Positions 29,829 through 33,603 of a stretch of DNA of 39,657 nucleotides are shown here, piece after piece. Position 1 is the stretch's first letter. Every line of letters starts with the position of its first letter. The notes beneath the pieces are model-generated. The model saw only the letters and a list, made by a program, of their open reading frames with translations, searched no databases and was not told where the DNA came from. Made by a program: the position numbers and the translations under genes. This DNA is from Bacillota bacterium (GTDB taxonomy: Bacteria; Bacillota; Proteinivoracia; UBA4975), in assembly GCA_012523545.1 (NCBI GenBank), contig JAAYIH010000019.1, positions 1 through 39,657 of the forward strand, in the 5' to 3' direction.

Positions 29829-30034
29829 TGTACACACTCCCTTCTGCACGTTGCCTGTGCCGGCAACAATTTTCCTCCTTTAGTATAGCATAGCCCAAAA
29901 GAAAAAAACCTATTATTTTTGTCAGGTTTTGTTTAAGGCAGGAATCGGAGGGCGCCGGCACGAAAATATACTTGACCGCAACCTGAGTCCGGCTCTCCGG
30001 CAGCGGTTCAATTCTACAATCAGGAGGGATGGCC

Positions 30035-30562
30035 ATGCCCTTTGGCGGAATGCACTCTTCTTTATTTACCCGGGAACTGTCCCTGCCGGAATTTTTTGCC
30101 CTGAGCTGGGAGCTGTTTAAAAAAATCTATCCTGTTTTGACGCTCGTCGGCATCATCCTGCTCTTTCCCATATTTTTGCTGGGGGAGCTTTACCCTGAAC
30201 TGCCCGCCGCCGTCAGCGCACTGATCACCCTTACAGAAGCTGTCGCCACGGCGGTGTTTACCCTGGGAGCCTACTGCGCTGTCCACAACGCCCTGCACCA
30301 GCAGGAAACGACCCTCGGCGAAGCTTTTGCCTTCGGGATGGCGCGCCTGGGCAAAGCTTTGTGGACCCTGGCCCTGTATGTGCTCATCGTCGCCTTCCTC
30401 TCCATCTTTTTCCTCGTGCCGGGGGTCATCTGGGGCGTATACTATAATTTCGCCCTTTTTGTGGTGGCCCAGGACGGAATTTGGGGTTATCCTGCCCTGA
30501 AAAAGAGCAAGGCCGTTATAATACAAGTAAACACATTTTCCTTTATTTTTTGCCTGCCTTAG
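30035..30562 (+). pseudogene. N-terminal part of a membrane protein gene interrupted by inserted phage DNA
   Basis: Begins at the ATG 30035 (AGGAGG 7 nt upstream; an ATG at 30029 is too close). Host-derived codons run to 30521; the last 13 codons (IQVNTFSFIFCLP, TAG at 30560-30562) are read from inserted DNA. It encodes an N-terminal FALSWELFKKIYPVL segment, then helices VLTLVGIILLFPIFLL, ITLTEAVATAVFTLGAYC and TLALYVLIVAFLSIFFLVPG. The ending YPALKKSKAVI is normally followed by RGRWWRVF, which is found at 33380. Joining 30035-30521 to 33380-33603 restores 236 codons without error. The family resembles DUF975-like or glycerophosphodiester-phosphodiesterase-membrane-domain proteins; function unknown. 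Confidence 0.88.
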
Positions 30563-30618
30563 TAAGGTTTAGTTGGGGTTAGTAAGGGATGGTGATGAAT
30601 AGCCTGGATTGGTTAAGT

Positions 30619-30648
30619 TTGACAGATTATTTCCGCCATCAATATGAT
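30619..30648 (+). promoter_or_regulatory. Promoter of the inserted HTH/glycerophosphotransferase operon
   Basis: Perfect TTGACA (30619-30624), 18-nt spacer, TATGAT (30643-30648). Its position shows that translation of the HTH gene starts downstream, at the GTG 30685. Confidence 0.7.
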
Positions 30649-30684
30649 TCTGGTAGAACAAGCCCAAGAAGGGGGGAAAGTGAG

Positions 30685-30903
30685 GTGGAAACGGAAAAGA
30701 GGCAGAAAATCAAGCTGCTAACTCCTGAAGAAGCCGCGAAGCGGCTGGCGGTCTCCCCAGAGACCGTCAAAAAGTGGCTTCGGATGGGCAAGCTCAACGG
30801 GGTAAAGGTGTCGGTACTATGGAGGGTTCGCGAAGAGGATTTGGAATATTTCATCCAGATCCGGACTGCTCCGATTTTGCAACCTGGGGGAGACAGAAAA
30901 TGA
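30685..30903 (+). CDS. Excisionase-like helix-turn-helix protein
   Basis: 72 aa from the GTG at 30685, 8 nt after AAGGGGGG; the frame is open back to 30589, but the promoter lies inside that extension. A single MerR/Xis-type winged helix: LLTPEEAAKRLAVSPETVKK, WLRMGKLNGVKV, WRVREEDLEYFI. Such proteins act as recombination directionality factors or small regulators. Here it is translationally coupled (ATGA overlap) to a teichoic-acid-type transferase, so regulation of that gene is equally possible. No cognate integrase is seen in the insertion. Confidence 0.8.
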   Translation: METEKRQKIKLLTPEEAAKRLAVSPETVKKWLRMGKLNGVKVSVLWRVREEDLEYFIQIRTAPILQPGGDRK

Positions 30904-32222
30904 AAAAAATAGTAAAAAATATGCTGAAAAACAAGATGATTAAATCTTTGCTTAGACCGTCTTTTTTAAGGAATGGCACTAAAATGGGAAGATGGATATA
31001 CAGAGAACTCACCCCGCGCCTGGCTCGCCTCATGCAGAACTTATTTCGGGTGAAGAAGGGAAAGGTTGTTTCCTTTGGCTCAGGAAATGTCAGTCCAATC
31101 CAATACAAGCTGCTAAAGCAGGAACTCCGCAAATACAAAGGGCTTAGTGTTCGCAGGTATGACAACTTTTACGGCAGAAGTATCATATCGCGGCTGATCA
31201 AAATCCCCTATGATGCGGCCACCAGTGAAGTAATTATCGTTGAAGATGTCAACAGGCTGTTGAAGTATTTAAAAAGAAATGGAGATCAATTGATTATTCA
31301 GATGTGGCATGCCTTAGGCGCTTTTAAGAAATTTGCACTGGGTAATGCGGAAAACCTGATACGTATTGAAAATGAGGATTTGGAGGAATTAAAAGCTGTT
31401 CATACATATGATTACGTCCTCGATCCCGGCCTCAAGTTCCGGGAGAAATACTTGGAATCCTTTGCACCGGGGTGCAAAATCCTGAAGGGTGTTTTCAATC
31501 CACGGATCGATTTGCTTTTTGATGAAGAGCATATCGCCAAAAAAACAGAACGTCTGTATGAAAAATACCCGGAGTTGCGGAATAAGCGGATTTTGCTGTA
31601 TACACCGACGTATCGAGGGTATTCCGACCGGTCGGATGCCCAACATTTCATGAACTTTGATGAGCTCCTGAGCCGGTTGGATGATCGTTTTATGCTGGTA
31701 CTGAAGAAGCATACTATCATGAAAAAATCCAGCTACAATCCGCCCAGCGAACAATATGCTCACAAATTCCTGGATTTAAGTAATGAGAATGTCAATAATC
31801 TGATGCTCATTTCCGATCTGCTGATTAACGATTATTCATCCACATTCTTTGAATTTGCATTGCTCGGCAAACCGGTGGTCTTTCTGGCGAAAGACCTGGA
31901 TCAGTACTTGGATGACCGCGGTTTCTATTATGATTACAAGGAGTTTGTGCCGGGTCCCATTTGTTCGTCAGAGGCTGAGCTATACGAAGCGATCATGGCC
32001 TATATTGATAATCCTGCAAGAGTGAAGGAATTTGTCGCCGAGTATTTCGGAGAGGTTCCGACGGATAACGCCAAGCGATTTGCGGAGTTTATCGTGGGAT
32101 TTATCAACCGCGACGGTGTGGAACGCGTCAAACCGAAAAGCGTTCCTACAGAGATCTCTGAGCTGGAGGTTCCTCAGCCTCGAAAAGAAGAACACAAAAT
32201 GGTTGAAAAAGAACTGGCTTAA
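30900..32222 (+). CDS. CDP-glycerol glycerophosphotransferase family protein
   Basis: Probably transfers glycerol phosphate (or a related group) from a CDP-activated donor to a cell-surface polymer, as TagB/TagF do in teichoic acid synthesis. 440 aa from the ATG at 30900, overlapping the HTH stop by 4 nt. Family motifs: IIQMWHALGAFKKF (catalytic His region), LLYTPTYRG, and the donor-binding LISDLLINDYSSTFFEFALL with GKPVVFL. The N-terminus is basic and amphipathic (KKIVKNMLKNKMIKSLLR), suited to membrane-surface binding; no helix spans the membrane. Codon use is more AT-rich than in the flanking genes, indicating transfer. In a phage it could alter the host surface to block superinfection. 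Confidence 0.88.
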   Translation: MKKIVKNMLKNKMIKSLLRPSFLRNGTKMGRWIYRELTPRLARLMQNLFRVKKGKVVSFGSGNVSPIQYKLLKQELRKYKGLSVRRYDNFYGRSIISRLIKIPYDAATSEVIIVEDVNRLLKYLKRNGDQLIIQMWHALGAFKKFALGNAENLIRIENEDLEELKAVHTYDYVLDPGLKFREKYLESFAPGCKILKGVFNPRIDLLFDEEHIAKKTERLYEKYPELRNKRILLYTPTYRGYSDRSDAQHFMNFDELLSRLDDRFMLVLKKHTIMKKSSYNPPSEQYAHKFLDLSNENVNNLMLISDLLINDYSSTFFEFALLGKPVVFLAKDLDQYLDDRGFYYDYKEFVPGPICSSEAELYEAIMAYIDNPARVKEFVAEYFGEVPTDNAKRFAEFIVGFINRDGVERVKPKSVPTEISELEVPQPRKEEHKMVEKELA

Positions 32223-32227
32223 AGATG

Positions 32228-32247
32228 CCGGCCCCGCGCCGGTTTTT
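32228..32247 (+). terminator. Terminator after the glycerophosphotransferase gene
   Basis: CCGGC/GCCGG stem with a CCCGC loop and TTTTT, 6 nt after the stop codon. Confidence 0.75.
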
Positions 32248-32254
32248 GTTCAAA

Positions 32255-32293
32255 AAATGACCGGGCAGGAGTAATCCCGCCCGGCTTTGTTTT
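32255..32293. terminator. Second, bidirectional terminator between convergent inserted genes
   Basis: CCGGGC (32261-32266) pairs with GCCCGG (32279-32284), with an inner GGA/TCC. The plus strand continues CTTTGTTTT and the minus strand TCATTTTTTG, so it can serve both the transferase and the amidase genes. Confidence 0.75.
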
Positions 32294-32295
32294 GC

Positions 32296-32984
32296 TCATT
32301 TCTTCAACCAGATATAAGAATCCAAGCCCGTCTTTTCTTTGATGAGCTTAGCCCTTTCCTCGGCGTTCTTTTTGTCCTCGAATGCGCCTACTTGGACGAC
32401 CCACGCGCCGCCCTTCGGCTCGGGTTTCGGCGCAGGTTTAGATTTCTTCCGGAGACCAAAAGCCTTGGCGATGCCTTCCGCATGGAGGCGGCCCAGTTTT
32501 TGCGGAAATCCGGGTCCTTCAATTGGTTCAGATCGCTGGAGTCAATGAACCCGTTCTCCGTCAAAAGGGCAGGCATCCGGGTTTCGCGGAGGACATGAAA
32601 GTTGGCCCGCTTCTGTCCGCGATCCGGCCAGCCGTCGCCAGCGGCAATGACCGAATGAATCCGGTCTTGGGCCACCTTCGTGAAGTTGGAGACACCACCA
32701 TTGTAGATGTAGCTTTCAAAACCGCGCCCGCCGCCTGCGTTGATATGGATAGAGAGGTAATAGTCGGCTCCCCATCTGTTTGCCTCATGGGTGCGGGCCG
32801 ACAAACTGACGGTGGTATCCTTCGTCCGGCTCATCTTCACCTCGACGCCTTCATACTCTTCGAGTAAAACCCGGCGGCATTCCAAGCCAATGTCAAGGGT
32901 GAAGTCTTTTTCCTGATAATTACCATTCACCGCTCCGGGGTCACTACCTCCGTGACCGGGATCAAGAAAGATTTTGACCGCCAT
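32296..32984 (-). pseudogene. N-acetylmuramoyl-L-alanine amidase (Amidase_3) with SPOR domain, frameshifted
   Basis: Phage-type endolysin. ATG at 32984 after GGAGAGGAG. The Amidase_3 domain is intact: FLDPGHGGSDPGA (zinc His and Glu follow), HEANRWGADYYLSIHIN and ETRMPALLTENGFIDS. Near 32483 a single base appears to be missing: the original frame continues as an unrelated Arg-rich tail to 32388. The neighbouring frame instead reads AEGIAKAFGL, a Pro/Lys linker, and a good SPOR domain (WVVQVGAFEDKKNAEERAKL) ending at 32296. Restoring one base gives 229 aa. The truncated product (198 aa) might still be active as it keeps the catalytic domain. Confidence 0.85.
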
Positions 32985-33373
32985 TTTTCTCCTCTCCTTT
33001 CTGACGCAGTTGATTTACAGCCTGACGGACAATCGGGTGGATCTTCACGCCCAATCGCCCGCAGTTTTCGATGACTGACACGCCTTCCGTGAAGAAAAAG
33101 GCGATTGCTACACCATCGCGAACAGCGACGGCTTGTTTTGCATCGGGTAAAGCATTGAGGGCCATCCAGTAGATCGCCGATACAACAATAAACGTCCCGG
33201 CTTTCCGGACGATCCCCCAAAAACCTACGTTGCTGTTGAGCTTGCCTTCCTTTGCGGCGGCAAGGAACCCCGTCACATAGTCAAAGGCCATCATCAAGGC
33301 CAAGGCCGTAAGAGAAAGGTCCCAACCACCAAACAAAAAGGAGGCGATCCCGCCTCCAATCCCAGCAAACGGC
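32962..33373 (-). pseudogene. Phage holin (Holin_4/toxin secretion type), 5' end missing
   Basis: Membrane pore protein that lets the amidase reach the wall. The readable part starts at the insertion junction (KPFAGIGGG) and continues through helices IASFLFGGW, ALALMMAFDYVTGFLAAA, the segment AGTFIVVSAIYWMALNAL and VAIAFFFTEGVSVIENCG, ending NGGQNLS. FDYVTG and EGVSVIENCGRLG are hallmark motifs. No ATG, GTG or TTG start precedes the first helix inside the insertion; about ten N-terminal residues are lost beyond the junction. Overlaps the amidase start by 23 nt, as usual in lysis cassettes. Confidence 0.82.
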
Positions 33374-33379
33374 TTATAA

Positions 33380-33603
33380 GGGGCCGCTGGTGGCGGGTAT
33401 TCTCCTTCACAGCCTTTGCCTTTGTGGTTTCGGCGGGCCTCATCGTCGCGGCGGCTTTCCTCTTTTCGGCCCTGCACCCGACCCCGGCCCTCATGCTGGT
33501 CGTCGACCTCATCGGGCTGGTTTTCCTGTCCTTCTTTACCGTCGCTCGTATTGTGCTCTATGTCAACCTGCGCGCAACACCCCGGCATCCTGAAGAGAAT
33601 TAA
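33380..33603 (+). pseudogene. C-terminal part of the interrupted membrane protein gene
   Basis: Continues the frame of 30035-30521: with the A of 30521, codons read RGRWWRVFSFTAFAF, then helices VVSAGLIVAAAFLFSAL and LVVDLIGLVFLSFFTVARIV, ending PRHPEEN and TAA at 33601-33603. It has no start codon or ribosome binding site of its own. Confidence 0.88.

What the first reader, a model, noticed from the sequence alone, without database searches (positions are those of the whole stretch)
30516..33379. Membrane-protein gene split exactly at TTATAA by a 2.86-kb phage-derived insert
The gene at 30035 runs in frame to 30521, and the same frame resumes at 33380 as RGRWWRVF, giving an uninterrupted 236-codon gene if one TTATAA and the DNA between the two copies are removed. 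Both ends carry TTATAA. This defines a precise insertion, possibly by site-specific recombination with a 6-bp overlap or by a transposition event duplicating 6 bp. Precise excision would restore the gene, so it could be a reversible switch, although no recombinase is encoded inside.
Basis: partly seen in the sequence, partly recalled or inferred. Interest (0 to 1): 0.78.

Follow-up and report, generated by a model that had tools for sequence, protein, structure and literature searches.

The report
Prophage scrap splitting a membrane-protein gene
A leftover 2.9-kb piece of a bacterial virus sits inside a membrane-protein gene and breaks it cleanly at a 6-letter sequence; the clean cut is real, but the piece looks like the broken end of an old prophage rather than a working on/off switch.

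Summary
TTATAA lies at 30516-30521 and 33374-33379; removing one copy plus the DNA between (2,858 bp) gives one 236/238-codon membrane-protein gene. Four good uninterrupted homologues from the same phylum align across the join without a gap, and the join falls inside their best conserved motif (SKxLVKGxWWRVF). So the gene really was whole and the empty site is exactly predictable. The insert holds an excisionase-family DNA-binding protein next to three 10-bp tandem repeats near the left junction, a TagF/TarL-like CDP-glycerol transferase, and a convergent phage holin-endolysin pair. The right junction cuts the holin after its first few codons, so its start is missing; the endolysin has a frameshift. 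The insert has no integrase, transposase or terminal inverted repeats, and the rest of the MAG holds no serine recombinase, no second holin, and only XerC/D-type tyrosine recombinases. The layout matches the lysis / lysogenic-conversion / att end of a temperate phage. Best reading: a prophage that integrated at a TTATAA core, then lost everything between a second TTATAA in holin and its other att site, leaving a stable scar. A reversible switch is not supported. An assembly chimera cannot be excluded.

The parts
30035..30521 (+). 5' part of a multi-pass membrane-protein gene (162 codons before the break; alternative ATG at 30029)
   Evidence: joined frame and full-length homologues G127, G284, G179, G369; no Pfam family
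33380..33603 (+). 3' part of the same gene, starting RGRWWRVF (first A of the AGG codon is in TTATAA), stop TAA 33601-33603
30516..30521 (.). left TTATAA copy, probable att core / crossover
33374..33379 (.). right TTATAA copy, shared by holin codons (..T TAT AA.) and the host gene (GTT ATA AGG)
30559..30588 (+). three head-to-tail 10-bp repeats TTAGTAAGGT TTAGTTGGGG TTAGTAAGGG, candidate binding sites of the excisionase-like protein
   Evidence: read directly from the sequence; function inferred
30619..30648 (+). sigma-70-like promoter TTGACA-18-TATGAT (11 of 12) inside the insert
   Evidence: a consensus match; total count of such sites is at chance level
30685..30903 (+). excisionase-family (TIGR01764/HTH_17) small DNA-binding protein, GTG start 8 nt after AGAAGGGGGG (longer ATG frame from 30589)
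   Evidence: TIGR01764 41.8 bits over cut-off 28.8; HTH_17 43.6 bits; phrog_66 excisionase
30900..32222 (+). CDP-glycerol:poly(glycerophosphate) transferase, TagF/TarL-like, intact, ATGA overlap with the preceding gene, GC 43%
   Evidence: PF04464 E=1e-50; TarL 8va1 E=5e-34; only copy in the MAG
32223..32290 (.). two back-to-back terminator-like hairpins between the convergent pairs
32293..32984 (-). phage endolysin, Amidase_3 domain, with a frameshift near 32475-32485 that puts its SPOR-like tail out of frame
   Evidence: PF01520 E=3e-40, phrog_435, frames; best phage match BalMu-1 endolysin 52%
32965..33379 (-). phage holin (PF05105) lacking its start codon; native start expected 1-8 codons beyond the junction
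   Evidence: only PF05105 hit in the MAG

Best explanation
A temperate phage integrated into this membrane-protein gene by site-specific recombination with TTATAA as, or inside, the core. The left end of the insert is the real prophage end: att core, excisionase-binding repeats, excisionase-like gene, a lysogenic-conversion gene (CDP-glycerol transferase), then the lysis genes facing it. Later the prophage lost everything from the 5' end of holin through the structural, replication and integrase genes to its other att site. The loss ran between a second TTATAA in holin and the TTATAA of that att site, most simply as an integrase-promoted deletion using holin as an attL-like pseudo-site. What remains is a stable 2.86-kb scar that keeps the host gene broken. 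Shown: exact gene split, both repeats, phage identity of the lysis pair, missing holin start, absence of phage recombinases from the MAG. Inferred: that TTATAA is the att core, the deletion, and the integrase's role.
For: Gene halves are one gene. Excisionase-family protein over its curated cut-off, with BldC-like matches (BldC-type proteins bind head-to-tail direct repeats; own knowledge), next to three 10-bp tandem repeats by the left junction. Order lysis genes - cargo - att is the known lysogenic-conversion position (PMC6237837; PMC7010278). Holin homologues start within 1-8 codons beyond the junction, so the insert's right end is inside a phage gene. In-register likeness of the 30 bp before each TTATAA, host against holin: 15 of 30, reached by 0.4-0.6% of window 30-mers, fits a pseudo-att site. 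No serine recombinase, no second holin, only XerC/D in the MAG. Insert GC 43-54% against 56-60% in the flanks.
Against: No relative phage or intact prophage of this kind was found, so the att core and native holin start are not seen directly. A deletion ending exactly at an att core is special unless an integrase made it. The CDP-glycerol transferase has no close phage relative: the two best 'phage' hits lie among cellular-looking genes. The 15/30 likeness is one test among several looked at. Closing the insert into a circle gives a plausible holin start (TTG TAT TAT AAG, 'MYYK'; homologue 'RYYK'), which favours the two ends once being neighbours.
Confidence: 0.5

Rival explanations
1. Assembly or library chimera: the real prophage, or unrelated phage DNA from the same sample, was joined to the host gene by error at the 6-bp match.
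For: The window is a whole 39.7-kb contig of a 55-contig MAG; the right junction lies inside a phage gene with only 6 bp of shared sequence; the frameshift in the endolysin may be a base error.
Against: Two separate joins to the same host point would both have to be wrong, or one real att junction plus one error; 6 bp is far below usual assembly overlaps; the host gene resumes without loss of a base.
Confidence: 0.2
2. Both ends are normal attL and attR. The phage or mini-element has its attP (TTATAA) inside the 5' end of holin, so integration cuts holin from its start; the insert is either the whole element or a prophage with an internal deletion between the two terminators.
For: Needs no second coincidence at TTATAA. 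A circle gives holin reading TTG TAT TAT AAG CCG with AAAGGA upstream, and YYK matches the G038 holin at the same distance from LFGGW. attP inside a coding gene is known for phage repressors (PMC4557955).
Against: Lysis genes normally follow tail genes; here holin would lie first after att and face inward. No integrase. No circular copy in the MAG and no matching phage. The start codon match may be chance (roughly 1 in 12 for the Tyr codon, given the fixed T; own estimate).
Confidence: 0.12
3. A short linear or circular piece of phage DNA was inserted by microhomology-mediated end joining or template switching, with no site-specific recombinase involved.
For: Short microhomology at both junctions, end inside a phage gene, no recombinase, no terminal inverted repeats.
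Against: The same 6-bp word at both ends and zero loss of host bases fit site-specific recombination better; the left end carries an excisionase gene and repeats, as a true prophage end would.
Confidence: 0.13
4. Reversible switch or transposon with 6-bp target duplication.
For: Exact direct repeats and exact gene restoration.
Against: Truncated holin at the end, no inverted repeats, no transposase, no integrase in insert or (beyond XerC/D) in the MAG; junction not dif-like: 15/28 and 12/28 against a best of 19/28 elsewhere in the window.
Confidence: 0.05

Closest known systems
Defective ('grounded') prophage remnants
   Same: Phage genes left in a chromosome after loss of the integrase and structural genes, still breaking the host gene; lysis gene decaying
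   Different: Extreme reduction to 2.86 kb with both host junctions exact at a 6-bp repeat
Lysogenic-conversion (moron) region between lysis genes and att in Firmicutes prophages (S. thermophilus phi20617, S. aureus PVL phages)
   Same: Extra gene placed between endolysin and the prophage end
   Different: Cargo is a TagF/TarL-like CDP-glycerol transferase preceded by an excisionase-like gene; no close phage relative found
Integration-dependent switches with attP inside a gene (mycobacteriophage BPs repressor)
   Same: If rival 2 holds, integration would cut a phage gene at attP
   Different: Here the cut gene would be holin, and no integrase or intact phage is at hand

Membership tests
Prophage remnant | Genes of clear phage origin | tested here: met
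   Holin PF05105 and endolysin PF01520/phrog_435, phrog_199
Prophage remnant | Host sequence intact on both sides of a direct repeat (attL/attR) | tested here: met
   TTATAA at both ends; host gene continuous in homologues
Prophage remnant | Loss of integrase, packaging and structural genes | tested here: met
   None in insert; no serine recombinase, only XerC/D type, only TerL-like hit is PhoH-like by eye
Prophage remnant | Match to an intact relative with the same att site (supporting, not required) | tested here: inconclusive
   No relative of the insert in viral, phage or held genome collections at useful similarity
Insertion sequence / transposon with target duplication | Transposase | tested here: not met
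   No transposase frame in insert
Insertion sequence / transposon with target duplication | Terminal inverted repeats | tested here: not met
   Ends TACAAGTAAACA... and ...CAAACGGC are not inverted repeats
Xer-dependent integrative element (IMEX) | dif-like arms around a 6-bp centre | tested here: not met
   Junctions score 15/28 and 12/28 against the Firmicutes dif consensus (consensus from memory), below chance sites in the window at 19/28
Excisable switch element (phase-variable or skin-like) | Recombinase able to excise, and an excised form | tested here: not met
   No recombinase in insert; single copy and no circle in the MAG; reads not available
Integration-dependent phage switch | attP inside a phage gene, shown in the free phage | not testable with these tools
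   No free phage relative found

The most novel reading that the evidence does not exclude
The two ends are true att ends: the phage's attP lies in the first codons of its own holin, so that integration removes the holin start and keeps lysis off until excision rebuilds the gene. The host gene and the holin would then be broken and restored together.
Probability: 0.08. Interest if true: 0.65.

Novelty: new member of a known kind. Interest (0 to 1): 0.27.

Why it matters
It is a clean scar of prophage loss: one gene broken at a known base, with the empty site predictable. It also keeps what looks like an intact, foreign cell-surface-polymer gene that the MAG has nowhere else, which could be a retained lysogenic-conversion gene. 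If the attP-in-holin reading were true it would be a new way to lock lysis during lysogeny.

Tried and rejected
Transposon with TSD: no inverted repeats or transposase. Xer/dif integration: junctions not dif-like. A second copy, circle or fuller prophage elsewhere in the MAG: none. TerL-like hit on C37: by eye a PhoH-like protein; C47 recombinase lies beside a phosphopentomutase-like gene, as XerD does in Bacillus (own knowledge); C24 is XerC/D by NCBIfam. Mu-like phage end: best endolysin match is Mu-like BalMu-1, but the gene order differs and no TG..CA ends are seen. Viral-contig hits to a holin-junction pattern were chance. Genome scan for the left half of the gene found nothing; the CDP-glycerol scan found only 31-33% relatives in gut Firmicutes MAGs. 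The excisionase-like gene's relatives in the two genomes looked at were not beside integrase or holin.

Full report
Observation. TTATAA occurs at 30516-30521 and 33374-33379. Joining 30029-30521 to 33380-33603 gives one frame of 238 aa, or 236 from ATG 30035, which has the better-spaced AGGAGG. Neither half has a Pfam family over its cut-off and the joined protein matches none, but a search of 399 genomes of the phylum with the joined protein found uninterrupted homologues covering both halves: G127 E=1.7e-22, G284 7.2e-17, G179 3.4e-16, G369 8.6e-9. In the alignment the join sits in the best conserved stretch, YSKxLVKGxWWRVF, with no gap. A shared stretch of 6 bp or more at two random breakpoints in this window occurs in 0.23% of draws.

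What is inside. From left to right: three 10-bp head-to-tail repeats at 30559-30588; a TTGACA-18-TATGAT promoter match (such matches are at chance number overall); a 72-aa protein of the excisionase family, TIGR01764 over its cut-off, HTH_17, also like excisionase phrog_66; an intact CDP-glycerol transferase, PF04464, nearest solved TarL and TagF, overlapping the first gene by ATGA; two terminator-like hairpins; and, facing them, an endolysin with an Amidase_3 domain and a holin. The endolysin's SPOR-like tail is out of frame. GC is 43% in the transferase, 54% in the lysis pair, 56-60% in the host gene.

The right end is broken. Holin homologues in three phages and in the related genomes begin 1-8 codons beyond the point where this holin meets the host gene. 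In the contig no start codon lies near. So the insert's right end is inside a phage gene, and TTATAA there is at once holin sequence (TAT AAG) and host sequence (GTT ATA AGG).

No helper in the MAG. The MAG is 1.73 Mb, 55 contigs, 96% complete, and the window is all of contig C3. It has no serine recombinase, one PF05105 holin, this one, one PF04464 gene, this one, and two tyrosine recombinases. One is XerC/D by NCBIfam; the other lies beside a phosphopentomutase-like gene as Bacillus XerD does (gene order from own knowledge). The single terminase-like hit looks like PhoH.

How it most likely arose. In temperate phages of Firmicutes cargo genes sit between the endolysin and the att site (PMC6237837; PMC7010278). 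Read from the right, the insert has exactly this order: holin, endolysin, cargo, excisionase-like gene, att. The left junction is therefore probably a real prophage end and the right junction a deletion joining holin to the other att site. The 30 bp before TTATAA in the host and in holin agree at 15 of 30 positions in register, reached by only 0.4-0.6% of 30-mers in the window; the other arms agree at only 4 of 30. An integrase could have taken holin for an attL-like pseudo-site. Secondary attachment sites of Int are known (PMC6379469). This step is inference; a RecA-independent deletion at 6 bp is possible too.

Rivals. An assembly chimera cannot be excluded without reads. A second rival is that both junctions are normal and attP lies in holin: a circle made from the insert reads TTG TAT TAT AAG CCG TTT into holin, with AAAGGA upstream, and the G038 holin reads RYYK at the same distance from LFGGW. 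attP inside a gene is known for the repressor of phage BPs (PMC4557955). Against it: holin would be first after att and not behind tail genes, and no phage with such a joint was found. Transposition, Xer-dependent integration and a reversible switch are not supported.

Verdict. The thing itself is a prophage scrap in a broken gene, an ordinary kind of object with an unusually clean join and one possibly retained surface-polymer gene.

Noticed in passing
30900-32222: The CDP-glycerol transferase is intact and is the only PF04464 gene in the MAG, so it may act on the host surface without a native teichoic acid pathway, or be silent.
   Followed up: partly
30559-30588: Three 10-bp head-to-tail repeats just upstream of the excisionase-like gene, spaced one helical turn apart.
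   Followed up: partly
33343-33381: Read in the host frame, the antisense of the holin start gives ...PSKRLIRGRWW, closer to the family motif SKxLVKG than the host's own KSKAVI; this likeness is part of the 15/30 match and may be chance.
   Followed up: partly
L078 and L079 (MT835633.1, MT837284.1): Two records labelled 'Bacteriophage sp.' look like cellular DNA where ORFs were read (cell-wall, spore and glycosyltransferase-type genes by eye).
   Followed up: no
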